A stretch of 64,000 bases of DNA from Vavraia culicis subsp. floridensis (lineage: Eukaryota; Microsporidia; Pleistophoridae). The notes beneath the pieces were generated by a model, which searched no databases, was not told the origin of the DNA, and was given only the letters and a program-made list of their open reading frames with translations. Location: contig NW_007360614.1 of the NCBI RefSeq assembly GCF_000192795.1, positions 62,001-126,000 of the forward strand, given 5' to 3'. Made by a program: the position numbers and the translations under genes. Positions 29,985 to 45,634 of the stretch are shown piece by piece (the first letter of the stretch is position 1; every line of letters begins with the position of its first letter).

Positions 29985-31607
29985 ATGAAAAGAATATTTT
30001 CGTGTTATATGTATTTGTATTTTCTGTACGTATTACGAATAGGTACACAAACATGGTACGGTGATGATTATCCAGATGAATATCTTCCTTACACACCATA
30101 TGATGATGCTGCCAGGAATCAAGGTTATGCAATGCAGCAGGATGCAAATAATAGAGCGAGAGTTTTGGGATATCCAAGTGCTGCTACTGCCTCTGATATG
30201 GCAGGAGCTGCTAATGCGGCTGATGCGTCAAGACTTGCCGGCGCAGTGAATGCAGGAAGACTTGCAGGTGCTGCCGGTGCTGCGGGACTTGCAGGTGCTG
30301 CCGGTGCTGCGGGACTTACAGGTGTTGCTAATGCTGCACATGCAGCTGGTGTTGCAAATGCACTAGGAGCAGCAGGTGCGCCGTATGCTGCAGGAGCTGC
30401 AAATGCTGCAGCTCTAGGACTCCATAACCGATCGATTTATCCAATGGGTGGTGCGTATCGTCATTTAGGAACCAGAGATGGGTACGGTTATGATGGTGGC
30501 GCACCAGACTATTATGAATCATTTAATGGACAGTATTTCGAACCATATAATTACGGGCACAGAGCTAACAGATTCGGAAGTGGTGCTCATGCACGGAATT
30601 TTGCAGACTTTGAGGTTGGTGTTTTAAGCGGTGAATCAACACAAGAAAGTGAAGAACTGGGACAGATGTATGAAGATGTCACCGGTCAGCACAATACTGG
30701 CTTGAATATAGGTCTTAGAGGCGGCTTCGGCGGCTTAGCAGGTGTGGCGGGCGCAGCGGGTCTTGAGGGAGGCCTTGGCCATGGAAGAGGGAGTCACACG
30801 ATTTGGACGCATCCCATTGGTCCTAATGCACTAGCGAGTATAGTCGAAATTAATGAACTAGGCGGTCCGGCTGGGCATTCAGCCTTTAGACAGGAGCGTG
30901 TCAATAACTTAGCGCATGATATTGCTAATGGACGTGTTGGCGGAATGCTTGGAGAGGCTGCACTGAGAGGAAATGGTGGTCTTACTGGTGCCGCTGGTCT
31001 AGGAAAAATTATAGGAAACGAGCCAGGATTTGGATCAAATCTCGGTGCATTTGCCGGTATTGCCACTGCATCGGGCTTAAATGGCGGGATAACCATGAGC
31101 CCCGAGGACCTGGGATATGAAGGTAAGGAGAGTCTGGGCGCAACTTCCAGAGTGGCAGCTGCAGGCAAACTCGGCCAAAGCCTAGGTATAAAAGCTGGTA
31201 TTAATGCTGGAATAGGCGACTCGCTAAGTTTGGAAACGCTAGCCGGGCTGGGACAGGGGATGGCCGTGGCCCATGTACTAGATGATCATACGAATGCCAT
31301 AAAGATAGAGGGTATAGAAGGACCAGCAGCCAAGGTTGCAGGATACGCAGGCATTCCAGGATCAGGCGGATACGGCAGCTATGCATCATTGCTGGGGATG
31401 GGTCCGAGCGGATCCGCATCATGGGCGGCATCCCATGCTCTTGGTGCCCGCGGAGGTGATGTGGTAGCCGAAAATGCAGCGTTTAACGATGTTAAATTGA
31501 TAAAACGACTGAACGAGGACATCCAACGCAAGAAAGAGGATGTTATCGAGGACACGCTTAAGAAGAAAATGCTAGAAACCGATCTTGAAGAAGAGCTCAA
31601 GAAATAA
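29985..31607 (+). CDS. Secreted Ala/Gly-rich repeat protein
   Basis: 540 residues. A hydrophobic N-terminus (MKRIFSCYMYLYFLYVLRIG) is a likely signal peptide. Residues 60-150 are dominated by Ala, Gly, Leu and Asn in repeats of about nine (AGAAGAAGL and variants); at DNA level two exact 27-base copies stand at 30259-30285 and 30286-30312 with a diverged third. A Tyr/Gly/His segment, further Gly/Ala-rich blocks and a highly charged coiled-coil tail (about 500-540, KRLNEDIQRKKEDVIEDTLKK) follow. The composition suggests an extracellular structural protein, for example of the spore wall or polar tube, but it matches no named PTP or SWP that I know. Higher GC than its surroundings. Confidence 0.78.
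   Translation: MKRIFSCYMYLYFLYVLRIGTQTWYGDDYPDEYLPYTPYDDAARNQGYAMQQDANNRARVLGYPSAATASDMAGAANAADASRLAGAVNAGRLAGAAGAAGLAGAAGAAGLTGVANAAHAAGVANALGAAGAPYAAGAANAAALGLHNRSIYPMGGAYRHLGTRDGYGYDGGAPDYYESFNGQYFEPYNYGHRANRFGSGAHARNFADFEVGVLSGESTQESEELGQMYEDVTGQHNTGLNIGLRGGFGGLAGVAGAAGLEGGLGHGRGSHTIWTHPIGPNALASIVEINELGGPAGHSAFRQERVNNLAHDIANGRVGGMLGEAALRGNGGLTGAAGLGKIIGNEPGFGSNLGAFAGIATASGLNGGITMSPEDLGYEGKESLGATSRVAAAGKLGQSLGIKAGINAGIGDSLSLETLAGLGQGMAVAHVLDDHTNAIKIEGIEGPAAKVAGYAGIPGSGGYGSYASLLGMGPSGSASWAASHALGARGGDVVAENAAFNDVKLIKRLNEDIQRKKEDVIEDTLKKKMLETDLEEELKK
30259..30325 (+). repeat. 27-base tandem repeat coding AGAAGAAGL-type units
   Basis: Two identical 27-base units (starting GACTTGCAGGTGCTGCCGG) at 30259-30285 and 30286-30312 and the start of a diverged third unit. 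In frame with the Ala/Gly-rich protein, so copy-number change would lengthen or shorten it by nine residues without a frameshift. Confidence 0.85.
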
Positions 31608-32017: not shown

Positions 32018-32374
32018 ATGCTAATGCTTTTTCTGTTTATGGGACTCATCATGTCTTTGGCATCTTCAGTATACAGAGGTGAAGGAGGTGATTACCGTGG
32101 GAGACATATCGATCTCAGAGATATACGTAGCAAACTAAATGTATATGATTCGGATGCAAAGAACGAGTACAATGAAGACCACACGAAGAGAAATGTTATC
32201 ATGGATAACGATACGTTTGATATGTTTTTCCGTCCGGATGAAGGAGAAAAAAAAGAAGATGAATATATTCCAACGAAGGATGAATTAAAGGCAGAAGAAA
32301 ATATGAGAGAGTTTGAGGATGACAAGGACAAGTATCTCTCATTTTTGAGAAAAGAGTTTGGTATAACGAGGTAA
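32018..32374 (+). CDS. Secreted protein, W/F-motif family member 1
   Basis: 118 residues from the ATG at 32018; the open frame begins at an upstream TTG, but the ATG gives a compact signal peptide (MLMLFLFMGLIMSLASS). The mature protein is acidic and helical. It carries KRNVIMDNDTFDMFF in the middle and ends DKYLSFLRKEFGITR. Both motifs recur, diverged, in the proteins at 33679, 43481 and 45059 (for example TKRDTIIRNEVFDWML; RFLQWVKKKLGVQ). Function unknown. No CCC/GGG start signal. Confidence 0.72.
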   Translation: MLMLFLFMGLIMSLASSVYRGEGGDYRGRHIDLRDIRSKLNVYDSDAKNEYNEDHTKRNVIMDNDTFDMFFRPDEGEKKEDEYIPTKDELKAEENMREFEDDKDKYLSFLRKEFGITR

Positions 32375-32648
32375 AGCATGTTATCAAATAAAATATTTTG
32401 CCGTAATTCTGCAGCATGGTTCTAAGACAGGCAAAACTATACGGGCGATTACTTTTCTAAAACGTTGATAAACTGTCTATGGTGTTAATTTGGATCGATC
32501 AACTTGTAGAAACATTTAACGTCGGATATTTTTAACGTTGTGCTGACTGAAAGTCACTAATATCGTTTTGATACACCGATGCTGATGTGACTCTTCTAAC
32601 ATTACATTATATGCTGTATTTTGCAAATAACCATACGTTGTTACGGCC

Positions 32649-33092
32649 ATGAATCTTATATTACGAGTTCTTTTATTCGTACCGGTAATATTAGCCTATA
32701 TAGGTGAATACGGTCGTTCCAGGATGGCAAGCATTTTACAAGAAAATAAACTCGCTTATAGCAGTTTGTTCCCCACAGAATGGAAAAACTCGAAAACAAA
32801 TGCAGCAGAAGAACGAGAAAACGAGGATATGCTCTCAAACATTTTAGCATCAGGCGGAAAGAGGGCATATAATGACTTGGTCGAGAAAATTCATGAGTTG
32901 GATCGAAATAACAGAAAGGCCAAGAAAGCGGACGAAAACGTTTTGAACTTAACATGTTGGATTTATGATGAAGATAATTGCACCAAAAAAAATAATAACA
33001 AAGAATTGAACGGAGTATTAGAGTCAGATCCTGGTTTTCTCATGGAAAGAGCGAAACATTACGCTTATTTGGATCGGAAGTTCACAATATAG
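32649..33092 (+). CDS. Secreted protein, W/F-motif family member 2
   Basis: 147 residues with a clear signal peptide (MNLILRVLLFVPVILAYIG). The mature part is charged, with the motif NVLNLTCWIYDEDNCTKK at about 98-115, containing two N-glycosylation sequons (NLT, NCT) and a pair of cysteines that could bond. It ends HYAYLDRKFTI, the shortened counterpart of the FLxW tail in its neighbours. About 270 bases separate it from the preceding family member on the same strand. Function unknown. Confidence 0.72.
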   Translation: MNLILRVLLFVPVILAYIGEYGRSRMASILQENKLAYSSLFPTEWKNSKTNAAEERENEDMLSNILASGGKRAYNDLVEKIHELDRNNRKAKKADENVLNLTCWIYDEDNCTKKNNNKELNGVLESDPGFLMERAKHYAYLDRKFTI

Positions 33093-33678
33093 TAAAGAAT
33101 CGGTAGTACATGTTTTTAAAGCATATTTGTTGCCACGAATGTTGCATCTTCTCTCCTAGTGATTATCCCCAATTGTTGATGTATCGGTATGCAGTTCGTG
33201 ATAACACTGACCAAATAATTAGTTGTTGATAATCGATTTCTCATTAGCTTTTATTTTAATAACAATATCATGCTTAGGAATCTCTGGTACACCCAATATC
33301 TTACAATTTTGTCTTTATTCGACGTGTATAGAGAAAAAAACTTGATACTGGGATTCATCAACGAATTCACACATGACAATATTTAATAATCTCTATGTAC
33401 TTCTTTTAATATAATGAACATATTAGTTGCTGCAATTCCGAATTATAGTAATCTTAAAATATTTAGCTAATCTTTATTCTACAAACTATAGTTTATAGTT
33501 AAACTGCCATGTGCAGGTTTCAATGATGTGTGCACTACTACGTTACATTAGGTTCACGCTACAACTCCTACACGGTAAAAGCTGAAATGGTATGTTTTGG
33601 ATGTTACACACAGTTTTATGAGTGGGAAGTCATTTACAATACAACACATTGAATCAACCAAGATAGACAGTTTTAACC
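33093..33678. other. Intergenic, no gene seen
   Basis: AT-rich spacer between secreted-protein genes. The frame at 33597-33824 runs in another register over the next gene's 5' end and is not supported. Confidence 0.45.
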
Positions 33679-34269
33679 ATGTTTGTATTAGCATATCGGT
33701 GTTTAAATACACTTCCAGCATTTTTATTCGCGAACATGTTCCTTTTTATTGCTTTTGCAAACACATACAACCATTTGCACACTCCCAAAAACGTGGATTG
33801 GGCTTCTATGATGAGCTTAAATGATAATAGGAGTGTAGAAGATTGGAGGGCGTTGGAAGATATCACGCAAGACTATACTCCGGAGATCCCAAAAAATCAG
33901 AACAAGCAAAATGTTAGAGAAATGCAAGAAGCTGATTTTAACGAAAACTACAATCCCGACTACACCAAGCGTGATACCATAATAAGGAATGAAGTGTTTG
34001 ATTGGATGCTCAGCAAAAACGATTTTAGTCCGGTAGAGCATGAAATAAAGAATATGATACGGAAAGATCACGAAGACTACAAAAATACCTTAGCTGAAAT
34101 TGGCATACTCCCAAACATAGACTATTTGAACGAAATGCAAGCGGCTTTAAACGATAAAGATGTAGGTCCGGAACAGAAGGAAGAAATTGCACATAATATT
34201 GAGGTTCAAAAGCAAAAGAATTTTCTCCTAAACAGGTTTGAAGGTGATTCGTACGATGATGTTGATTAA
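33679..34269 (+). CDS. Secreted protein, W/F-motif family member 3
   Basis: 196 residues. Two starts are possible: the ATG at 33679 and one at 33736, which would give a tighter signal peptide (MFLFIAFANTYNHLHT). The mature protein is acidic and helical. The pair TKRDTIIRNEVFDWML and EDYKNTLAEIGIL aligns with the two motifs of the protein at 32018; a further 60 residues, largely charged (ALNDKDVGPEQKEEIAHNI), extend beyond the second motif. No cysteines in the mature part. Function unknown. Confidence 0.7.
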   Translation: MFVLAYRCLNTLPAFLFANMFLFIAFANTYNHLHTPKNVDWASMMSLNDNRSVEDWRALEDITQDYTPEIPKNQNKQNVREMQEADFNENYNPDYTKRDTIIRNEVFDWMLSKNDFSPVEHEIKNMIRKDHEDYKNTLAEIGILPNIDYLNEMQAALNDKDVGPEQKEEIAHNIEVQKQKNFLLNRFEGDSYDDVD

Positions 34270-34680
34270 ATCGTTAATGCACTATTATAACCGGGTTGAA
34301 ACAGATAATTTTATATAAATTATTTGAAGCGAATGGTGGAACGCATTTTTTATTCGTAGTGGATATATTCTGCATACTAAGTGCTTGAAAAGCCTTTCAC
34401 TGTGACATACAGGATAGTAAACATAGACTATAGTATAAAAAGAACAACTAAAATTGAGTTTGGTTAAATAGTAGATTATGACACACGTACTATTTTTTCG
34501 GTGATAGAAAAGTGAAACACCATGTTTAACATATGTGTCAGATATTGGTGTTAAACGACTAATGTATTTATTTGTCTTATTGTTTTCAAATATACGGTAT
34601 CAAAAATTTTCTGAATTTGCTTTTTTGGTTATGCACACAAAACATAAATAGTAACTAGGTGTATTTATAGATTATCCGCA
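34270..34680. other. Intergenic, no gene seen
   Basis: AT-rich sequence between a secreted-protein gene and the first copy of a direct repeat. Confidence 0.45.
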
Positions 34681-35025
34681 TTTTATCAGATTCACCTGTA
34701 TAAATAAAAAGACAACTCGAAAGTTGATCGGTCAGTTTGAAAAGAACAAATTACCTGATCCTTCATAGGAAATCAAAGTTATTTTTTCTTATTTTTATGC
34801 GAAATAAATAGTTAAAAGTTATTATTTGATTCGTTTTTACAATATTTGTTCAGTCATCCCTTGCAAACAACATCAGAAGTACATGATTACCAAATGAAAT
34901 TAACTATTGTCCCCTACCAAAAGATCTAAAACAAATGAAAAAGAATGGTATGACATATGAAAAGAAGGAAGTATCGTTTAATAGCTAATCGAACTTTATT
35001 CTGTTTTGTTAACGGAAATATATTA
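34681..35025 (+). repeat. Diverged direct repeat, copy A
   Basis: Roughly 340 bases that align in the same direction with 37420-37760. The left end shares TATAAATAAAAAGACAA; the right end shares a 36-base block (34985-35020 against 37721-37756) with a single mismatch. Between them the similarity is patchy but collinear (for example ATGATTA.CAAAT). The two copies bracket the secreted gene at 35393-36961. Confidence 0.6.
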
Positions 35026-35210
35026 GTTAATATTACCATAATATTGGAAATATAGTTTGGTTTCTTCACTAATACTCGTTTATTTATCTCCTCATACAAC
35101 AACACCGAGATAAACATACTTTTCAGATTTGTAGGGATCGTTCACAGCGTCATAAGAAAGGAAAGGGCCATTAAAAGTGGTGTAGAAGGGCGTGCCTAGC
35201 CATAAACTGT

Positions 35211-35363
35211 TCAAAACAATCTCGTCATGTCAACGAAAAATAAGTTATTTTCATGGCGTACACAAACACCTTGTAGAACGAATGTATCTACCAACACCAT
35301 TTTCTTCGCTAGGTCCTTATCATCCATAAAAGCTCCTTTTCTACTAAAAGCAATACCATTCAT
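35211..35363 (-). CDS. Possible 50-residue frame downstream of the 522-aa gene
   Basis: ATG at 35363, stop at 35211. The text (MNGIAFSRKGAFMDDKDLAK ... FFVDMTRLF) looks protein-like, and the frame is open through the stop of the neighbouring gene, one base out of register. It may be the lost C-terminal end of that gene after a frameshift, or a separate micro-protein. There is no start signal and no signal peptide. Confidence 0.3.
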   Translation of the reverse strand: MNGIAFSRKGAFMDDKDLAKKMVLVDTFVLQGVCVRHENNLFFVDMTRLF

Positions 35364-35392
35364 ACGATAGTACAGATCTTTTATGTCGTCCC

Positions 35393-36961
35393 TTACTCCT
35401 CATCATTCACTTTGGTCTGCACGAAGACCTCCACTACAAACTGGTAGATTTTGTAGAACTTCAGTATCGCACCAGCAGCTACACGATCATTTACACCGCT
35501 GATACCTTTCATGATCTCCTTCTTCAGGTCGTCGCACCCAGTCTTAACCACATGTTCCGATGCAAGCATTCTTCTCATATTCATGCCAAACGCTCTTTTG
35601 AACTTTGGAAATAATGATTTAAGTACTTTCTGCAGCGGTATGTTTTCGTGCAGTGCTTTGCAGGTAATTTCTTGATCCCACGAATGTTTCATGGTAATAT
35701 TGGAAAAACGCAGTGCACCAAATAAATCTGTGGCAACAAAGAAGAATATGTCATAGAAGTTAGGCACTTCCTTTCCAATGCTCATCAGATACGCATACTC
35801 CAGCCTGCTGAAATAAACGTATTTACTGACTATATTTATGCCAGTATCAAGAGCAATCAGGAGTTCGCTGAGTAGCACATCTCTCACAAACAGGCGGGTG
35901 GCTATCAGTTCTGTGTTGTACTGTTGACGCATACTGCTGTAGTGCAGTAACCTGGGCAGGACAGCTTCTATCTTGCTAGCAATGTAAATTGAGATCAGCC
36001 TGGTTCTGATACAGATTTGCTGTGCATGTGTACGAAAGAGCGTGTATTGGTGATACACAGAGATAAACTCAGGAAACAGCGAAAGCTTGGCACAGAACCG
36101 TGTTTCGAAGAGAACATGCATCGAATATGCTTGTGCTACTGCAAGATGATTCATTATTTTACGGTAATTCCTGTTGCCTCTGTAAATAGTCATATCGATC
36201 CGAGTACACAATTCGAAAAATGCTTTTGATTGCTGAACATACAAATTATCATATTCTGCGTTCCTTCCAAACCATTCGTTGTGTGCAATTGATTGGTTTG
36301 TTGGTGTTGCTTGCTCTTGCACACCTTCGTTCGTGTTACATTCCTTTGTACCGATAAGACGAGCGAATACACACATAAGATCATGTATTAATGTGCACTT
36401 ATCCATTGTAATGCTCAGTTGAAGTATTTCATGCAGAATCTCTTCTATCTTCTGTACGTAATAGCACCTTGGCTGTTCTTTCATAATTTTCTCGCATTCC
36501 GCACTAAAACGTGCTATTTCGTGTTTCTTTTCTTTTCGATTTGCTTGTTTTAACACTAAAATATGCGACTTGCGGAATGAGTCTGCAAGTTTCAACAGTT
36601 CATTTCTTAGGCCGATGAAGTACAATCTTAGTGATTCGTCATTTTGTGATTTTCTAAGCATTTGTTCTACTTCATTAGAGTTGTAATCTCTAAAAGCATC
36701 TCCAAAAGATAACAATGCATGATATATCTTATTATATTTTGCTTTACCTTCTAACATATCGTTATGTTTTTCCCTAAATTCTTTCATACGCTCTATGTTA
36801 CTCATTATTGGTGTGTTATGATGTGTACTCCACACATAATCATTTCCACCATCTACTCCGCTATTCTCACCATATGCATTCGCCATATTTGCTAAGTCTC
36901 GTGCACCACCTTGAGATGCCCTGATCAAAGAAAGAATGAAGATAATCCAAAGACAATCCAT
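35393..36961 (-). CDS. Secreted helical protein (522 aa), function unknown
   Basis: 522 residues with an N-terminal signal peptide (MDCLWIIFILSLIRASQGG, cleavage near 19). The mature protein is almost entirely alpha-helical, with scattered single cysteines and no repeat or enzymatic motif that I recognise. Unlike the other secreted-protein genes here its ATG is immediately preceded on the minus strand by CCC (36962-36964), it lies on the opposite strand, and it is bracketed by two diverged direct repeats. A protein-like frame continues past its stop one base out of register (to 35211), so the C-terminus may have been shortened by a frameshift. Confidence 0.72.
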   Translation of the reverse strand: MDCLWIIFILSLIRASQGGARDLANMANAYGENSGVDGGNDYVWSTHHNTPIMSNIERMKEFREKHNDMLEGKAKYNKIYHALLSFGDAFRDYNSNEVEQMLRKSQNDESLRLYFIGLRNELLKLADSFRKSHILVLKQANRKEKKHEIARFSAECEKIMKEQPRCYYVQKIEEILHEILQLSITMDKCTLIHDLMCVFARLIGTKECNTNEGVQEQATPTNQSIAHNEWFGRNAEYDNLYVQQSKAFFELCTRIDMTIYRGNRNYRKIMNHLAVAQAYSMHVLFETRFCAKLSLFPEFISVYHQYTLFRTHAQQICIRTRLISIYIASKIEAVLPRLLHYSSMRQQYNTELIATRLFVRDVLLSELLIALDTGINIVSKYVYFSRLEYAYLMSIGKEVPNFYDIFFFVATDLFGALRFSNITMKHSWDQEITCKALHENIPLQKVLKSLFPKFKRAFGMNMRRMLASEHVVKTGCDDLKKEIMKGISGVNDRVAAGAILKFYKIYQFVVEVFVQTKVNDEE

Positions 36962-37419
36962 GGGATGGCACGCTGCTGAACATTAAATAGTTCCAACTTA
37001 TTGATAGACATGACAGTAATGCGAGATATGGTATGTCTATTGACACTTGAAATGCTGTCATAAACGATGTAAAAGTACTACTCTGTGTGTTTTGGTATAT
37101 GCGTACATTACTGTTCTGTAGAATGTAAATCGTGGTGTATTTTACCGATAACTTGGACTAAATCAGCATTCTACACGTCAAAAAATCATTTCTTAAAAGA
37201 GAAGAACAACAGCATAGAAGGATGTTTGTCAGAAATAGTACCACCATGCAACCAACTAATAAATCATTCTCATTCAGCAACGGTATTGAGTAAATGTTAT
37301 TGTTTGTTCATATTTTGTGATGTGAGAATATAAATAAATAACTTTTAGTGAAAAAGGAAAAATAATAAATCTGATTTACTAGAAAATTGCTAAATTGGCA
37401 ATGAGTGTTATGTTCACTC
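36962..37419. other. Intergenic, upstream of secreted gene
   Basis: Upstream region of the leftward secreted gene. An 82-codon frame (37085-37333, forward) lacks a start signal and is not supported. Confidence 0.4.
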
Positions 37420-37760
37420 TCTTGTATCATGTATTCATATAAATAAAAAGACAATTCAAATGTTCAGAAGTCGATTCTGTGAAACAAAAAATATGACCTT
37501 TTAGGAGAAATATAAAACTGCGCTTTCACTTTATACACGAAATATAATGTCTAAGTTTTTGTTCAATTCATTCTCTACATGAATGCTAGGCTGTTCTTTT
37601 CAACAACACCAAAATGATTTGATTATCAAATCAAAATTGATTCTTTATCTCGATTAAAAGAGTCAGAACAAGTAAAAAGTATAACATGGTATATTAAAGG
37701 AAAGAAGTACAGTTTAATAACTAATCGAACTTTATTCTGTTTTATTAACGGAAATAGCGT
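37420..37760 (+). repeat. Diverged direct repeat, copy B
   Basis: Second copy of the repeat at 34681-35025, same orientation, about 2.74 kb to the right. The 36-base block CTAATCGAACTTTATTCTGT... at 37721-37756 differs from copy A at one base. The remainder is more diverged. Confidence 0.6.
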
Positions 37761-39071
37761 AGCTAGTAAAAAAGTAAGTATTATTAATAATTATCAGTAG
37801 ATTAGCACAAACAACTTAGAATTATATCACATATAACTATCTATTTCTGAAGATTGAATAACACTTTAATATTACGAGTAGAAAATATGCAAGTTAAAAG
37901 TTGTAGAGATATTAACGATCATTGTGATGAATGAGATGGTGAACAGCTAGTTAAAGAGAAGATGATTGCTTGTAAATAGTATTGTATCTATGTGGTTTAC
38001 TTGAAGGACAGAACACAAATAGCACTTTTTATCGTTCCTTTCGAATTTTTTGAAAGTAAAATAAGGTACCACTGTAAAACTCATTATTTTTCGTACCATA
38101 TCAATATTTTTCTAGACTGTTATGCTCGTTAGCGTTTTCACACGCTTTCCTATACTACTGAACAATCCTTTGAGTCAATCCTGTTTTATTTTTTTTGGAA
38201 ATATCGATACCATTCGAATAATTAAGTTAATGCAACAAACCGGTTTTCGTAGAAATTTTCTAGCGTTATTGATATCCATTTTTACCGAAATATGAGTTCT
38301 CGCTGCTAAACACCTCTTGTTGATTTCATTTAGGGCATTCGCACGGTGTACTTTACTTAAATGATTTTTCATTCATTGAGTGCACAATTTTGACTATTTA
38401 AAACGAAAAGGTATTGGTAAATTCTGTTAAATTTTGTTTGGTTCAATTTTTTGGATGCATGATAATTTTATCTGGGCTATAAACAGAAATAATGTCGTCA
38501 TTTTGGTTCTATTTGTTCATAAAGTTCATACAAAAAGGCCTGGATCGCGAGATATTTTTACAACAATAGGTACAATCTGTCCTATAATCGAATTGTCTCG
38601 ATTAATTGTTTGAGGCTCAACCGCATGCGTCTTCGAAATTGCACTACTAGTTATCTTAGTTGGATATTGGCGGTTCGAAAACAGTCTCTATCGCAGAAAG
38701 CATGTGGACCCTAAATATTTTAACGTACAACCATGTCTATGTTTCAAATATTTTGAATTGATCAGAACGAAACCGAATTCATACGTTTGAGAGCAACTTG
38801 TTTTCCTCTATACGTTGTGGAACATAGTTGATTCAAACAAGTGTTTCAAATACAAGCATGGACCGTATGATTATGATGAAACCTTGGAACATGATTAACG
38901 AGCCTGAGAATTTTCGTAGAAAACACTTTTCTACAGAGACTAAAGCACGAATTATTTTGAAACAGGTCTAAATCAATAGGCCCACGGAATACAACAAATT
39001 GATAGCTGAAATAAAACATCTGTATCGCCTGAAAATATAAAAATAAATATCACATACTTTGACACATTTCT
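37761..39071. other. Intergenic with a Tc1/mariner-like relic
   Basis: Apart from the relic at 38101-38372, which has its own entry, this 1.3-kb stretch holds only short frames in AT-rich sequence. Confidence 0.45.
38101..38372 (-). pseudogene. Decayed Tc1/mariner-like transposase fragment
   Basis: On the minus strand 38372-38175 reads a 65-codon frame with VHRANALNEINKRCLAART followed by HISVKMDINNARKFLRK, which follows the Tc1 transposase pattern (second helix-turn-helix, then the K-P-x-I-S-x-K-N-x-x-x-R-x-x-F-A segment). Further on, 38154-38101 gives YRKACENANEHNSLEKY, resembling the later Tc1 stretch between the first and second catalytic aspartates. The register changes and stops show it is dead. 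No terminal inverted repeats found by eye. Confidence 0.42.
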
Positions 39072-39986
39072 ATGTTATGTATAGTTCTCCTTATTAACTT
39101 ATTATTAGCCATGCTTGTCAGATGTACAATGTCTGGATTCTCTAATGACGGTAATCCTGAAATATCTAAGCGATTCATCAGCTGGTTTTTCATGACAAAA
39201 TTGCCTATTATGTTCAGGACAAGATCTAAAACAGCAAGCATACAGACGAATACGGCTGTTGTTGACGATAAACCAAATGAACTTTCGGAAAATGAAGTGA
39301 TTAGGCAGTATAGAAAAAAGAAAAACAAAAAGAACATATTAGGAAATCCAATATTTGATGACAACGGAAATTTAATCATATTAAATCATAACAGGAAAGA
39401 TAACAATAATGTTAAGGATAGAGCTGGTAGAAGTGCCGACAATATGAAGAGAAATATTGCATCTGCCAGCACAGTATTTCATAGAAAAGTACCCGATGAT
39501 GAAAAAATAGTTCTTTTTAAACGACAAGATAAGCTTTTGCAGAATCCAAGAAAGCAGAAGCGAAACGATGTAGAAGGAGAATTATATACAGAATCTGTAT
39601 ATAGAGGAAACTTAAAAACAAAATTCAATAAAGACGAACAACGGGTTCACATTCAAGATCACAGTTCTTCGTCTGATAGTAGTACGACAAACTTTGATTC
39701 TTCACATTATGACGAACCCACGCGAGAGGAAACCTATTCAGTACCGCTTTCGGAAAGAGAAATGATTAACAAGTGCTATCAATCCAAACCACACGAAAGA
39801 AAAACATGTGAAATTTCAATGTATCAAATTCCAAATAGTGCGCAAATCAATCCTGCAGTTCCCATTAATGGATTGAACGACACAAGCCATTGCTTTGCTA
39901 TGCAGAATAATCGAGGGATTCGGAATTCTATCATTGAAGCACCTACATACACGGGTCGCAATGATGTAAATTTTAATAGTGAATAG
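39072..39986 (+). CDS. Secreted basic, low-complexity protein (304 aa)
   Basis: 304 residues with a signal peptide (MLCIVLLINLLLAMLVRC). The mature N-terminus has RFISWFFMTKL, which recalls the FLxW tail of the small secreted family, here at the front. The rest is hydrophilic and low in structure: basic blocks (YRKKKNKKN, PRKQKRND), a Ser/Asp run (HSSSSDSSTTNFDSS) and three cysteines near the C-terminus. Basic clusters could act as nuclear signals if the protein enters the host cell, but that is speculation. No family recognised; no CCC/GGG start signal. Confidence 0.65.
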   Translation: MLCIVLLINLLLAMLVRCTMSGFSNDGNPEISKRFISWFFMTKLPIMFRTRSKTASIQTNTAVVDDKPNELSENEVIRQYRKKKNKKNILGNPIFDDNGNLIILNHNRKDNNNVKDRAGRSADNMKRNIASASTVFHRKVPDDEKIVLFKRQDKLLQNPRKQKRNDVEGELYTESVYRGNLKTKFNKDEQRVHIQDHSSSSDSSTTNFDSSHYDEPTREETYSVPLSEREMINKCYQSKPHERKTCEISMYQIPNSAQINPAVPINGLNDTSHCFAMQNNRGIRNSIIEAPTYTGRNDVNFNSE

Positions 39987-40893
39987 TAAACGTACAACTA
40001 AGTAAAACGTATTTATGTCACGTTGGGTTTTAAGCCAGGCCGAAAGACCTCCATTTGTAACTTTCAAGGATTTAGCTTATTGTCCACGTCATGGTTAAAG
40101 TATGCTATTGAAGCAACTACAAGTAGAATAGTTAGTTCGAAGATCAGGTATGGAACCTTATATGATACAGAATGTGAAGCGAGTTCGGAATGATGTACTG
40201 AAACAATGATATGTGCGTGGTGCTTCGATGATAGATTAGTATTTATTGGAAAAGCCGAAATTGATGGTTCTGTACAACATGGATAGCTGTATTACACAGA
40301 ATATGTGTTGACTTCATACGAAAAATAATTTACGGGGTGTGATATTCTACGTTATGAGGTGCTGCACTATTGATTGAGGAAGGACTAAAACATGGACATT
40401 CAACGATAAAAGATTATTTTTGGTATGTTATATAGCCAGTTCTAGCCATATAATAAAACTATGAGATTTAAAGTGTATTTTTGCCAATACGAGAAAATCC
40501 AAAACATTTGCAGCGTATTGCTATGTGTGACCTGAATATCACATCATGATAGTGGTATTAATTCCATGTTTTAGGCACCGTAAGAATTTTATCCACTAAA
40601 AATGATCATATGCTCACAATTTGCTCGTCTGGTGTAGCCATACCTGGTGAGCTTCGGTTCAAACGGCTAGGAGGATGATATGATCTTCCAAACGCTAATT
40701 GATGCAAAACATGATATTTTTATGAGTTAATCGTACAACACCAAGAATTATCATAGTTCCGCAGCTTCACGGTTTTCTGCTTCGTAACCAAAATATACTA
40801 TTATGACAAAATATTTTCCTATCGTAGTAAGAATAATAATCCACGAAATGCGAGCTTTATAAACACAAAAGTTCAATTGATGCAACATTCACA
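39987..40893. other. Intergenic with transposase relic
   Basis: Contains the Tc1/mariner-like fragment at 40150-40440. No other supported feature. A T-loop-like GGTTCAAA near 40652 lacks pairing arms, so it is not a tRNA. Confidence 0.45.
40150..40440 (+). pseudogene. Decayed Tc1/mariner-like transposase fragment
   Basis: From ATG 40206 a forward frame reads MICAWCFDDRLVFIGKAEID, close to the Tc1/mariner strand VMVWGCFS...LVFIDG around the second catalytic aspartate. Just before it, one base out of register, stands NVKRVRNDVLKQ, which fits the preceding VKHGGG region. After a stop, TKTWTFND at about 40384-40407 resembles the WIFQQDN strand with the second Asp. Stops and frame changes mark it as a relic. 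Confidence 0.45.
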
Positions 40894-41166
40894 ATGCCCC
40901 AGGAGGATGAGCTCCAACGCTATCACGATGTAGTATCTAGAACGATCGTAGTGATACGGAAGACAGTTGTAAAACCTTTATATGGTCACAAAACACGAAT
41001 CAGTATTGCATATTGCCTAGCAAGTATTCTATCAGCTTTGAAAATATATTTTACTGTGTATGGAATTACTTCCATAAAGTCCGCACACAACATGCTGAAA
41101 AATAGAACAAGTTGTGTGTACAAATTAATTTGGGAGACAAATATGGGAACTCGATTTATTTACTGA
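40894..41166 (+). CDS. Doubtful 90-residue frame
   Basis: 90 residues from an ATG, soluble, with a central hydrophobic helix (ISIAYCLASILSALKIYF). The codon pattern looks coding at the 5' end, but I recognise no family, see no start signal, and it follows a transposase relic, so it may be a transposon remnant. Confidence 0.3.
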   Translation: MPQEDELQRYHDVVSRTIVVIRKTVVKPLYGHKTRISIAYCLASILSALKIYFTVYGITSIKSAHNMLKNRTSCVYKLIWETNMGTRFIY

Positions 41167-41203
41167 ACGTTAGATCAATACACATCTGTAAATTCGCTCG
41201 TGA

Positions 41204-42181
41204 TCACCTCTTATTCCATTCCAAGAGATACGAATTTTTGATTCTTTCTCCGCAGTTAAGAATTAATTTTACCTCATCAACATCCATCTCACCGGTGTAA
41301 AGATGATTTTTATATAAATCACAACTGGTAGAGGTTTGAGTTGACTGTTTTGTGTTGTGCAATGGTGCCATGTCCGTGGGATCAAGCGAATTAATTCTAG
41401 TCTGTGTATTATTAACCGCATTATCTGGAAAATATGTGGATGAGCTGTGGCCTATTTCCATCGGTGACTTGTTAACATGTCCGTTCCTACTGACAATGCT
41501 ATTATCACCACCACGATACACGATTATACGATGTTCAATGTTTTCGTTCAGCTCCTTCTCTGTGCAAGTTATTATACTGCTTTTAGCGGAGATACTAGGT
41601 ACATTCTCAATTATATCCCTTTTTTTTTTCATATTGAAGCCATCATCGCGTTTCCTAGATTTATCAACGTGTTCTTTATTAGATAGGTCTGCCAAAACAA
41701 TTTTCTGTGTTTGATTATAACTTGGCTTACAAATTGAGATGGGTGTTAGCTTCTCGGAACCGCTTTGTCTATTTAAATACTTCTTACGTTCACTAGCCGC
41801 TATAATTGATGGTTTTACATAACAGTTATCGAGATCAAACGCATGGTTCAGCCTGTGTGCGCGAGGTAACTTCGTTGCACTCAGGGTTTCACGTAATTTA
41901 ATGCCTACTTTGACCTCTGTTCCAAGATCAGGAGATGAACTAAATCGTTCTACTTTTGCAACGAGTCCATTATTTCTCAAGCCATCAACATCGCCTGTCT
42001 TTGTTATGGTGCGATTATCGAGTTCATCAACAATTTTCGACCACTGGTGGAAGTAATTGCTGTTTGTCTTAGCAGGTGCACCCCCTACAATTCTCTGATG
42101 CAGAGCCTCTTGCATACAAACGACTTTTCCCTTGGTTATGATTTTATCCTCATAAAATTGTATCAAGTCGCGAACCTTCAT
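41204..42181 (-). CDS. Non-secreted low-complexity protein (325 aa)
   Basis: 325 residues, no signal peptide (starts MKVRDLIQFYEDKIITKGKV). Only the first 60 residues look folded; the rest is hydrophilic, rich in Ser, Asn, Thr and Lys with a basic patch SRKRDDGFNMKKKRDI near the middle that could be a nuclear localisation signal. No domain recognised. It sits among secreted-protein genes but on the opposite strand and does not share their motifs. The start has no CCC/GGG signal. Confidence 0.6.
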   Translation of the reverse strand: MKVRDLIQFYEDKIITKGKVVCMQEALHQRIVGGAPAKTNSNYFHQWSKIVDELDNRTITKTGDVDGLRNNGLVAKVERFSSSPDLGTEVKVGIKLRETLSATKLPRAHRLNHAFDLDNCYVKPSIIAASERKKYLNRQSGSEKLTPISICKPSYNQTQKIVLADLSNKEHVDKSRKRDDGFNMKKKRDIIENVPSISAKSSIITCTEKELNENIEHRIIVYRGGDNSIVSRNGHVNKSPMEIGHSSSTYFPDNAVNNTQTRINSLDPTDMAPLHNTKQSTQTSTSCDLYKNHLYTGEMDVDEVKLILNCGERIKNSYLLEWNKR

Positions 42182-43480
42182 TGTTTACCAATTTTTTCTC
42201 CTTTTTATACACATTTGTTTATTTTGATGTTTTTCTATCATGATAAATAAGCAATGATGCATGCTGTGTAATTGTCATTAGCCATCTTATTTGCTCCATT
42301 CTACATTCATTGACCGTGTCATTCAACCTATTCTCTTATGAAATCGTTTAATTGCCCATCAATAAAATTACTCGTATAGTTGAAGTGATCAATGTAAATT
42401 CTACAGCAATGAAATAAATGTTATCTGAGAAATATCACGGCTGTTGATTGGTCTGAAACGAACATGTAGGTTAAAGGGGTAGAGAAGTACGTTGATCAAA
42501 TTTCTTATTAGTGAAAAAATAAATAAATTATTTATTTATTTTATTCCTGATCAGGAACAGAGCCAATATGAATTTGAGCATTTTGTTATTTGTGCAATTT
42601 AGAATGCTGCACAAATAGTTTACTGCTTTAAAGCATTGTATTTATCCAGACGATGACATGAAGGTAGGTTAAAAGTTTTACATAAAGTTAGATGAAGTGT
42701 CTTACCTGTTCAGGTAAATTGAAAGAATGGATTTTAGCTCAGAGAAGTAGAATTAATTAGATCAGATTCTGAGCTGTTTATTCAAATCCGAGGAAACATT
42801 GACTTGAAATTTAAAGGTAATAGGTAGCAATCCGAAGTTAGCATATGACACTGAGATAACACAACTTGTTTTTATTATTGTTTGAAAATGTTTAATCTAA
42901 ATTTAATACAGGAAAATGGCAATTTAATACTTTTGTCTTGTTGTAAAAGATGAGACTGGTATATACTATCATGCCTTTTAAAAGATATGATAGTGATGGT
43001 ATCACCATATAATGCAGTAGTATTGGCATAAAGCATCACTTTCGAATCGTGGATGATTATTCCAAGAGATATTGTGCAAAATTTTTGCATTTATTCCTCA
43101 TATCTAATGTCCTTTTCATCTTTTTGATAAGTAGGGTATTAATGATAAATTAAACCGGTAAATTTTTCTGACTTAAACCAATATAGGCTTAATATCGGTC
43201 ACTTTACATAATTTTTCCATTATAGGGAAACTCTGCATTTTTCGGATAGCTTTCTTGTCATTATCCTTATAACTTCAGTTTAACACCGGATTAAATATCG
43301 TGTGTGACCAGTTTTATCAACATCTCTGCTTATTGATCCAAAGTAATGTTTGACTGTATCGTATTGTCGTATCCGGTGTATTGATTAGATATTTCGTACT
43401 TGACAGCGAACACTTGTTTAGAACTAAAAAGAATCAAATCTATTTTTTGTTTTCTCTGACATTTTGTTCATGAATATATA
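42182..43480. other. Intergenic, AT-rich palindromes
   Basis: No supported gene. A perfect 14-base palindrome TTCCTGATCAGGAA stands at 42544-42557 next to an imperfect AT palindrome of TAAA/TTTA units at about 42520-42542. Purpose unknown. Confidence 0.5.
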
Positions 43481-44155
43481 ATGTATGAGTTATTTTGCGA
43501 CATGTTTCTTTGTGTTGTTCACTATATATGTAATGTCAGGAGTAGCCGTATCAATTATATGCCTTATAGGTACCCGAAGGAGGATAATAATGATATTAAT
43601 GGCGCATACTCATATCAATATCACGATAGGAGGAGCCCAGAGGATAATATACTTTACAAGCAAAAAAATAATAATGACAATGGGATGGACTTTAACCGAC
43701 GATTATACGAAAACATGGAACAAGTGCTGAGAAAGCAGTCGATATTTAATATATACCACAATAATGGACTCGTTGATTACAATAACTACGTAAAAGAACA
43801 GGTTGGTCAGGGTACAGCTACTCCGAGTGAGTATAAGGATTTTAAGGAAGTGGAAAAGGAAGAGATCCGTACGGAAGAGGAGGGACAGCCAATTGCAGGA
43901 GAAAGAAATAATGTCAATAAGGATAAAGAAAAATTTGATATTTTCAAGTGGTTAGAAGACAAGGATAATGTGATGGAGAATGATTCAGAAGAAGAATTAC
44001 AGAAAATGTTAGAATTGGAACGTAAAGAGCAAGAGGAAGAAATTAACGAGCAAAAAAAGAAGGCAGAAATAAAAGAGAAAGAAGCTGCTAAGGATATGGA
44101 CAACAGAAAGATTCGTTTCCTGCAATGGGTCAAAAAAAAGTTGGGAGTACAATAA
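43481..44155 (+). CDS. Secreted protein, W/F-motif family member 4
   Basis: 224 residues. The body is acidic and strongly helical with long Glu/Lys runs (about 140-205), the motif FDIFKWLEDKD near residue 150 and the tail IRFLQWVKKKLGVQ. The tail is nearly the same as in the next gene (NRFLQWARHEYNVK). The N-terminus in this frame (MYELFCDMFLCVVHYICN) is a poor signal peptide; four bases later another frame begins with a far better one (MSYFATCFFVLFTIYVMSG), so a small indel may have moved the true signal out of register. Function unknown. Confidence 0.65.
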   Translation: MYELFCDMFLCVVHYICNVRSSRINYMPYRYPKEDNNDINGAYSYQYHDRRSPEDNILYKQKNNNDNGMDFNRRLYENMEQVLRKQSIFNIYHNNGLVDYNNYVKEQVGQGTATPSEYKDFKEVEKEEIRTEEEGQPIAGERNNVNKDKEKFDIFKWLEDKDNVMENDSEEELQKMLELERKEQEEEINEQKKKAEIKEKEAAKDMDNRKIRFLQWVKKKLGVQ

Positions 44156-45058
44156 CCATATACCTTGTCTGAGACAATAAAAAATAGGTTATACGTTATT
44201 TTGGTCCAACATGGGTTGCTATCAACACCGGGTAATGTTTTATTTGTTGTTGACAGAAGACGAGATTTTTTAGCGTTATTTTATGTTGTACACCGCGATG
44301 ATGTTTTGGTGTCATATATAATACGAGATAATACACAGTTTTATTGGGAATGTATCTGTTCCAATGTATATTGAATGGCGTTATACGTCAATTTCGCCGT
44401 AATAATACGAATTAAAAAATATTGTTTTTTGGTATCCCGAACACTCGTATTTATCCCATATCGTATGCAGATATTTCCTATTAAAACATTTGTAATCAAC
44501 AAAAAGTGGCACAAATCATAAGCTAAGAGTTTTTAAGGCCATGGTAGGTGCTGAGAAAGTTTTTCTTGTTGTAGCTGTGAGATAGTAATTAAAGTGATTT
44601 AAAAAGAAGCTGAACGAAATGTTTTTCTGTAAAAGCGTGTTCATTGACTAACAGTAAACCGGATACTTCGGCACACTTAATACCATAGAGCACGTTCTGC
44701 TGAAGCAACAGTCATAACCAAACAAATATATTACACTGCCTGGGATTAGTTTCTTAATCTTCGGAAATACGCCTAGCGGCTCTATCCGTGTTAGACAAGC
44801 GAAACGAGTACATTCGTATCATTTCAAACATTTTAGTTCTAGAAATAATATGGTATGTGTTGAATGCCATTTACTGTTTGATTCTGTTAATACGATCTGT
44901 TGCAAACTTCAATTTTTGTACAAAAAGAGTTTGCTTCAAATCGGCTAACAGAACATTTTTGAATCATTATAAAGACATATCGTGGATATTTTGATTGTAT
45001 GAAAGATTAAACAGTTCACTCGTCATAAACTTAAAATATTCTGAGAAGACACTTTCTC
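44156..45058. other. Intergenic, no gene seen
   Basis: A TTG-initiated frame at 44165-44374 and another at 44788-44994 have neither signal peptide nor start signal. Nothing else noted. Confidence 0.45.
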
Positions 45059-45634
45059 ATGCTAACTTTATTCTTCAGTTTGTCGTATTGTTATTACGGA
45101 AAAGATGTTCTTGGCTTTTATAAGACAGATAAGCCTCCATTTAACGTAACTGCCCGGTATTTAAAACCGTATGATCAGAGGAACCATGAAGACAACGTAA
45201 ATTTCCGTAAATCTGATGAAATTGTGCAAAATAATCCCGAACCCTCGTATTTTGAGCAACAGGTACAAATAGCAGGCATGCTCGATACCGCACTATCCGG
45301 ATATCGAAGCGATTTGAACAAGTTCAAGCATGTGGATGACAAAATGAACAACATACGTGCAGTAATAAAAGAAAATGAATGCGTTATGAACGAACAGGAT
45401 TTGGATGAGGAACCACTTAACGTGGTTTCCTGGCTTTACCACAATAATAAGGAGGAGGAAAAAATAGATAAGGATTTGCAAAGAGAGGTGGAGAATAACA
45501 TCATACATGCCAAGGAAAAGCGGGATAGAATTATGAGAATGGAAGAAGATCATCTTAAAGACAGGCGATCGGAGGATCGTGAGCACAAAAATCGGTTTTT
45601 GCAGTGGGCAAGACATGAATATAACGTTAAGTAA
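45059..45634 (+). CDS. Secreted protein, W/F-motif family member 5
   Basis: 191 residues with a short signal peptide (MLTLFFSLSYCYYG). The mature part has a Tyr/Pro-rich N-terminal segment containing NVTARYLKPYD (one N-glycosylation sequon), the motif LNVVSWLYHNN near residue 123, a long charged helix (EEEKIDKDLQREVENNI ... LKDRRSEDREHK) and the tail NRFLQWARHEYNVK. Spacing between the two motifs is about the same as in the gene at 43481, its closest relative here. Function unknown. Confidence 0.75.
   Translation: MLTLFFSLSYCYYGKDVLGFYKTDKPPFNVTARYLKPYDQRNHEDNVNFRKSDEIVQNNPEPSYFEQQVQIAGMLDTALSGYRSDLNKFKHVDDKMNNIRAVIKENECVMNEQDLDEEPLNVVSWLYHNNKEEEKIDKDLQREVENNIIHAKEKRDRIMRMEEDHLKDRRSEDREHKNRFLQWARHEYNVK

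What the first reader, a model, noticed from the sequence alone, without database searches (positions are those of the whole stretch)
32018..45634. Divergent tandem family of small secreted proteins with a two-motif design
Five predicted secreted proteins (32018, 32649, 33679, 43481, 45059), all on the + strand, share an order of parts despite low overall identity: signal peptide, variable region, a W/F motif (DTFDMFF, LTCWIYDED, VFDWMLSKND, FDIFKWLEDKD, VVSWLYHNN), a charged helix, then a tail (KYLSFLRKEFGITR, HYAYLDRKFTI, DYKNTLAEIGIL, RFLQWVKKKLGVQ, RFLQWARHEYNVK). The last two are clearly related; the others are joined by short motifs. A rapidly diverging family exported by an intracellular parasite is a candidate for host-directed effectors or spore-surface proteins.
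Basis: partly seen in the sequence, partly recalled or inferred. Interest (0 to 1): 0.78.

Follow-up and report, generated by a model that had tools for sequence, protein, structure and literature searches.

The report
Old cluster of secreted microsporidian proteins
A short stretch of a microsporidian parasite genome holds five small proteins of unknown function with export-type starts; most look like very old, much-changed copies of one gene, and at least three are kept by a related parasite, so they fit an already described class of parasite surface or secreted proteins rather than a fast-changing new family.

Summary
The five ORFs are real and lie where stated. Four have clear hydrophobic N-termini; 45059 is borderline. 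The family claim holds in graded form. 33679 and 32018 share a TKRxxIxxNxxFDxM block; 32018 shares the tail with 43481 and 45059. 32649 is joined only weakly, and the 'tail' given for 33679 is internal. The array is not contiguous: three other ORFs separate a triplet from a pair.

'Rapidly diverging' is not shown. Trachipleistophora hominis keeps 32649, 43481 and 45059 at 57-69% identity (THOM_0327, 0332, 0333), so the 43481/45059 duplication predates that split; the 45059 tail is the most conserved part of its protein. For 32018 and 33679 no T. hominis relative was found. Genome searches, of low sensitivity, found no further close copies. AlphaFold gave a long, uncertain helix for 45059 and nothing usable for 32649.

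Best reading: lineage-specific secreted coil-like proteins, plausibly of the parasite's surface coat, docked by the C-terminal tail. The class is already described (T. hominis/V. culicis-specific families are enriched in signal peptides); this locus is a new instance. Function is inferred.

The parts
32018..32374 (+). Secreted-type protein, 118 aa; shares the TKRxxIxxNxxFDxM block with 33679 and the C-terminal tail (KYLSFLRKEFGI) with 43481/45059
   Evidence: ORF; z about 7 with 33679; tail vs 45059 and vs 43481: 0 of 170 background tails score as high; 98% identical P0007; no T. hominis match found
32649..33092 (+). Secreted-type protein, 147 aa; weak member (W motif VLNLTCWIYDEDN); T. hominis homolog THOM_0327
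   Evidence: best local matches among 180 comparators are 43481 and 45059; profile comparison not significant
33679..34269 (+).
   Evidence: 96% identical P0001; no T. hominis match found
43481..44155 (+). Secreted-type protein, 224 aa (true start may be 43502, where T. hominis THOM_0332 begins); three motifs DRRSPEDN, KFDIFKWL, RFLQW tail
45059..45634 (+). Paralog of 43481, 191 aa; weak hydrophobic start; motifs DQRNHEDN, LNVVSWL, RFLQW tail; T. hominis homolog THOM_0333
   Evidence: AlphaFold model mostly helix
35393..36961 (-). Secreted-type 522-aa ORF that interrupts the array; no relation to the five detected
   Evidence: no Pfam family above cut-off; not among the four best matches listed for any of the five
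39072..39986 (+). Secreted-type 304-aa ORF that interrupts the array; no relation to the five detected
41204..42181 (-). 325-aa ORF without strong hydrophobic start (hydropathy 1.29) that interrupts the array
29985..31607 (+). Ala/Gly-rich 540-aa ORF with moderately hydrophobic start (1.54) and charged C-terminus; borders the cluster

Best explanation
An old local cluster of small exported proteins of the Trachipleistophora/Vavraia lineage of microsporidia. Shown: the ORFs, hydrophobic starts (one borderline), the 43481/45059 paralogy, and T. hominis homologs of three genes (hence a 43481/45059 duplication older than that split). Supported: 32018 and 33679 belong to the same family; 32649 possibly. 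Inferred: each protein enters the secretory pathway, loses its signal peptide, and extends a highly charged helix whose conserved aromatic/basic C-terminal tail (and perhaps the W motif) docks onto a partner or membrane, making it a building or linking element of the parasite surface coat (plaque matrix or vesicle wall) in contact with host cytoplasm.
For: Three shared motifs in 43481/45059 and profile P=3.7e-5. Homologs THOM_0333, THOM_0332 and THOM_0327. The 45059 tail is the single most conserved 19-residue window (19 of 19 vs T. hominis, 17 of 19 vs P0004, which is 45% identical overall; 1 of 173 windows, itself, in each). D, E, K, R and N make up 40-49% of the five vs 26% mean and 38% 90th percentile in 170 background ORFs. 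AlphaFold: long helix 122-188, ten-residue block means above 90 pLDDT for residues 141-180. Secreted-type ORFs (hydropathy 2.2 or more, 100 aa or more) crowd here: 8 of 14 on the 132-kb contig lie in the cluster; two of the 8 and at least one of the other 6 overlap a longer ORF on the other strand and are probably not genes. T. hominis/V. [quoted passage not shown] T. hominis has a plaque matrix that infiltrates host cytoplasm and contains secreted hexokinases (PMC6460350, passages).
Against: No localisation or expression data for these genes. Pfam gives nothing above cut-off. The 45059 model has pTM 0.26 and the 32649 model is unusable (mean pLDDT 44). The tail is not common to all: the C-terminus of 33679 resembles only that of 32649 (score reached by 4 and 0 of 170 background tails), that of 32649 also 32018 (0 of 170) but not 43481 or 45059 (106 and 27 of 170). 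The 43481 tail is not specially conserved against T. hominis (11 of 16; 101 of 202 windows reach it), nor is its W motif (5 of 8; 146 of 210); the 45059 W motif is reached by 23 and 50 of 184 windows. In 32649 the most conserved stretch is another block, AAEERENE...GGKRAY. 29985 also scores against 43481 (p 0.0033), so charged helices alone can mimic such matches.
Confidence: 0.33

Rival explanations
1. Diffusible host-directed effectors released into the host cytoplasm or nucleus, with the W motif and tail as host-protein binding motifs.
For: Export-type start, narrow spread and no known domain are properties of host-exposed proteins in Nematocida (PMC5423893, passages). V. culicis has 169 secreted, expressed proteins without predicted domains, treated as candidate effectors (PMC4435813, passages).
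Against: No sign of copy-number expansion: 6 own-genome protein searches each returned one place, the gene itself or the window gene homologous to the query (low sensitivity, since 43481 and 45059 do not find each other this way). Three genes are kept at 57-69% identity in T. hominis.
Confidence: 0.3
2. Spore-wall or polar-tube structural proteins, with the Ala/Gly-rich protein 29985 next door as partner.
For: Adjacent low-complexity protein with a hydrophobic start; charged coil-like composition.
Against: No spore-wall, polar-tube or chitin-binding family in the Pfam scans; only 0-3 Cys per protein; the only named homologs are from T. hominis and are called hypothetical.
Confidence: 0.2
3. 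Not one family: two unrelated pairs (43481/45059 and 32018/33679) plus an unrelated 32649, alike mainly in charged composition.
For: Profile tests beyond the two pairs are weak: 32018 vs 43481 P=0.0048, the other five P 0.077-0.28. 33679 and 32649 show no overall similarity (z about -1.2). The full ordered three-motif score taken from 43481/45059 is reached by 2, 2 and 9 of 176 background ORFs for 32018, 32649 and 33679, and by 13, 34 and 346 of 2000 shuffles.
Against: Composition-corrected 32018-43481 z 4.3-5.1 and tail matches reached by 0 of 170; all five best matches fall inside the set.
Confidence: 0.3

Closest known systems
T. hominis/V. culicis-specific signal-peptide families (PMC4654818; citing PMC3879972)
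   Same: Secreted-type, no domain, and three of the five have T. hominis homologs (THOM_0327, 0332, 0333)
   Different: The passages seen treat the class as a whole; text searches for THOM_0333 and for THOM_032 or THOM_033 as word starts found 0 papers; supplements could not be read
Nematocida large host-exposed families (NemLGF1, NemLGF5; PMC5423893)
   Same: Signal peptide, clade-specific, members of the large families often adjacent on the chromosome
   Different: The four large N. parisii families have 18-169 members; here five were found and at least one duplication is old; no Nematocida protein was returned by name
Plaque matrix (PQM) coat of T. hominis (PMC6460350)
   Same: A coat at the host interface that holds secreted parasite proteins
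   Different: The proteins localised there are hexokinases; no link to this locus is shown

Membership tests
One paralogous family (the five proteins) | Mutual sequence similarity above composition-matched background | tested here: met
   Met for 43481-45059, 32018-33679 and 32018-43481, not for all ten pairs
One paralogous family (the five proteins) | 32649 joins with significance | tested here: inconclusive
   Best matches are 43481 and 45059, but z 3.1 at most and profile P 0.14 and 0.28
One paralogous family (the five proteins) | Shared C-terminal tail in all five | tested here: not met
   Clear only among 32018, 43481 and 45059; 32649 matches 32018 and 33679 only; 33679 matches 32649 only
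One paralogous family (the five proteins) | Shared fold | tested here: inconclusive
   45059 long helix, pTM 0.26; 32649 mean pLDDT 44; the other three not modelled
Clade-specific secreted proteins of T. hominis/V. culicis | Homolog in T. hominis | tested here: met
   Met for 45059, 43481 and 32649; none found for 33679 and 32018
Clade-specific secreted proteins of T. hominis/V. culicis | Predicted signal peptide | tested here: inconclusive
   Hydropathy only; no signal-peptide predictor available; 45059 borderline
Clade-specific secreted proteins of T. hominis/V. culicis | Absent from other microsporidia | tested here: inconclusive
   Searches report only T. hominis by name plus proteins of unnamed contigs; the search depends on shared 5-residue words, and three of the five proteins shared one search
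Microsporidian large gene family as defined in PMC5423893 | At least 10 members in one genome | tested here: inconclusive
   Five found; no more in 6 low-sensitivity own-genome searches or two motif scans (with 41, and 71); 12 of the 42 sites were not examined
PQM coat protein | Localises to the plaque matrix | not testable with these tools
   Needs immuno-EM

The most novel reading that the evidence does not exclude
The tail ([KR][FY]Lx[WF] followed by 8-9 residues to the stop, seen in 43481, 45059 and 32018) is a lineage-specific C-terminal docking signal by which otherwise unlike secreted proteins are retained in the parasite coat at the host interface, comparable in role to a sorting or anchoring tag.
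Probability: 0.08. Interest if true: 0.6.

Novelty: new member of a known kind. Interest (0 to 1): 0.3.

Why it matters
Lineage-specific secreted proteins are thought to be a main interface between microsporidia and host cells, but few have recognisable parts. A small, old set whose order appears kept, with a strongly conserved C-terminal tail in one member, gives a short concrete element to test for coat retention or partner binding. If they are only ordinary orphan secreted proteins, the locus adds little beyond annotation.

Tried and rejected
W motif as a property of all five: rejected for 32018, weak for 32649. A wider W-motif family: a 385-aa secreted-type ORF at C11:53075-54232 carries a similar SDNILEWYSAKDH, but none of the five has it among its four best matches; left open. 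A block-sharing protein in L039 (1609-2925) proved to be a 438-aa ORF with, by eye, a RING-like Cys-rich start and a 12-residue chance match. The duplicated intergenic stretch near 34.7 and 37.4 kb was first taken as a trace of gene duplication; it is a dispersed repeat. Weak Pfam hits (TnpV, MgsA_C, HlyC and others, all below cut-off) were discarded. No structure library search was run: the models are too poor.

The background for ranking was 176 mechanical ORFs of 90 aa or more (170 after dropping those with X) from the window and part of the fetched loci; many are not genes, and few are as charged as the five, so the ranks are indicative only.

After the one check of this report I added the tail match of 33679 with 32649, the three-motif totals, the hhalign probabilities and the poor conservation of the W motif, all in calls already made, and lowered the best explanation from 0.35 to 0.33.
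Full report
What was checked. The window is bases 62001-126000 of contig C11 (132,345 bases) of a 5.63-Mb, 80-contig genome. Homologs named Trachipleistophora hominis at 57-69% identity point to a Trachipleistophora/Vavraia-type microsporidian; the species itself is not shown by any search. The five ORFs stand where stated.

Is it a family? Pairwise local alignment with shuffles first gave 32018-33679 p 0.00019, 43481-45059 p 0.0023, 32018-43481 p 0.0024, 32649-43481 p 0.019 and 32649-45059 p 0.037; the other five of the ten pairs were 0.13 or worse. In the same call 43481 and the Ala/Gly-rich 29985 gave p 0.0033, which shows that a charged helix alone can reach this level. I therefore ranked against ORFs of the same genome: each of the five finds another of the five as best match among 180 comparators, and composition-corrected z-scores leave 32018-33679, 32018-43481 and 43481-45059 with 0 to 2 of 170 background ORFs at or above them, and 32649-43481 with 2 and 3 of 170. 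Profile-profile comparison gives P=3.7e-5 for 43481 vs 45059, 6.4e-4 for 32018 vs 33679, 0.0048 for 32018 vs 43481, and 0.077-0.28 for the other five of eight comparisons made; hhalign's own probabilities are 71, 28 and 7% for the first three and under 1% for the rest. 32649 was not compared by profile with 32018 or 33679. So 43481/45059 is settled, 32018 and 33679 are probable, 32649 is open.

The design. 33679 has NDNRSVEDW; with the W motif it outscores all 176 background ORFs, but shuffles of itself reach that in 82 of 2000. 32649 with its W motif also outscores all 176 (19 of 2000 shuffles), though its best stretch for the first motif is not convincing; nor is that of 32018, whose two-motif score 41 of 176 reach. 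The full ordered three-motif score is reached by 2, 2 and 9 of 176 background ORFs for 32018, 32649 and 33679 and by 13, 34 and 346 of 2000 shuffles. The W motif in leave-one-out tests is reached by 0 of 176 for 33679 and 43481, 2 for 45059, 5 for 32649 and 54 for 32018. C-terminal tails: 43481, 45059 and 32018 match each other better than any of 170 background tails. 32649 matches 32018 and the true C-terminus of 33679 (0 of 170 each from its side; 4 of 170 from the side of 33679) but not 45059 or 43481 (27 and 106 of 170); 33679 does not match the other three (16-17 points or less, 18 or more of 170).

Age and spread. 45059 matches THOM_0333 (69%) and an unnamed-contig protein P0004 (45%), both exactly 191 aa. 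43481 matches THOM_0332 (63%) and 32649 matches THOM_0327 (57% over all alignment columns). All three T. hominis entries report the same longest contig length, 311,951. The four numbers between 0327 and 0332 equal the four window ORFs between 32649 and 43481 (33679, 35393-, 39072+, 41204-); that these are counterparts is an inference. The 43481/45059 duplication therefore predates the split from T. hominis. For 33679 and 32018 only near-identical proteins of unnamed contigs were found (96% and 98%); 32018 shared its search with two other proteins in one alignment, so a miss is possible.

More copies? Six single-protein searches of the genome each gave one place, the gene itself or the window gene homologous to the query; these searches do not even link 43481 with 45059, so only close copies are excluded. 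A pattern for [FY]LQW gave 42 sites (30 for the reversed control); of the 30 held as loci only the 43481 and 45059 sites lie 8 residues before the stop of an ORF of 100 aa or more; 12 sites were not looked at. A DRR(S/T)PEDN-like pattern with up to two mismatches gave 3 sites, 43481 being the only exact one, with 2 in the reversed control; 45059 differs too much to be found by it.

Constraint. In 45059 the tail EDREHKNRFLQWARHEYNV is 19 of 19 identical to T. hominis and 17 of 19 to P0004; no other window of that length reaches this (1 of 173, itself, in both). For 43481 the tail is not exceptional (11 of 16; 101 of 202 windows reach it) while its DRRSPEDN motif is fairly so (11 of 13; 10 of 205). 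The W motif is not specially conserved in 43481 (5 of 8; 146 of 210) or in 45059 (23 and 50 of 184). In 32649 the most conserved part tested is AAEERENE...GGKRAY (21 of 24; 2 of 127), not a reader motif; its W motif is kept 13 of 15 (16 of 136).

Structure. AlphaFold on three sequences of 45059: mean pLDDT 66.9, pTM 0.26, helices 2-15, 40-58, 64-110 and 122-188, the last confident in its middle. 32649 on two sequences: mean pLDDT 44.4.

Surroundings. The nearest ORFs outside the cluster, 26985- and 46759-, have no Pfam family; further out lie ordinary genes (chaperonin, MCM, TGS-type GTPase, sugar transporter, ubiquitin-activating E1, HhH-GPD repair enzyme, Ras-type GTPase, Dus). Within the cluster 29985, 35393- and 39072 are further domain-less ORFs with hydrophobic starts (1.54, 3.05, 3.12). 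CCC or GGG within 15 bases before the start codon occurs in 7 of 11 other window genes and 1 of 9 genes of the cluster (Fisher p 0.028).

Mechanism. Export by a signal peptide, a charged helical spacer, and docking through the C-terminal tail is my best reading, with the plaque-matrix coat as the likeliest site. Export rests on hydropathy; the helix on one model of modest confidence; docking and site are inference. Lineage-specific secreted genes of this kind are described as a class (PMC4654818: section 10 read, passages elsewhere; PMC4435813, PMC3879972, PMC5423893 and PMC6460350 by passages). Text searches for THOM_0333, and for THOM_032 or THOM_033 as word starts, found 0 papers; supplementary tables could not be read, so the genes may be listed there.

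Noticed in passing
34699-35052 and 37438-37789: A dispersed repeat of about 0.32-0.35 kb (two copies here, 67% alike) with 23 matches in the genome at E 0.001 or better, 66-100% identity including itself; at least three of them begin within about 330 bases of a contig start. Possibly a non-autonomous mobile element or solo LTR (guess).
   Followed up: partly
29985-31607: Ala/Gly-rich, silk-like 540-aa ORF with a moderately hydrophobic N-terminus and a charged C-terminus, with short tandem repeats in its coding sequence.
   Followed up: no
starts of 20 window genes: CCC or GGG within 15 bases before the start codon in 7 of 11 other genes but 1 of 9 genes of the secreted cluster (Fisher p 0.028); suggests a different promoter or expression class.
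   Followed up: partly
L044:3075-4232 (C11:53075-54232): A 385-aa secreted-type ORF outside the window with a W motif (SDNILEWYSAKDH) like those of the cluster.
   Followed up: partly
35393-36961: 522-aa secreted-type ORF without Pfam family above cut-off, with a copy of the dispersed repeat on either side.
   Followed up: no
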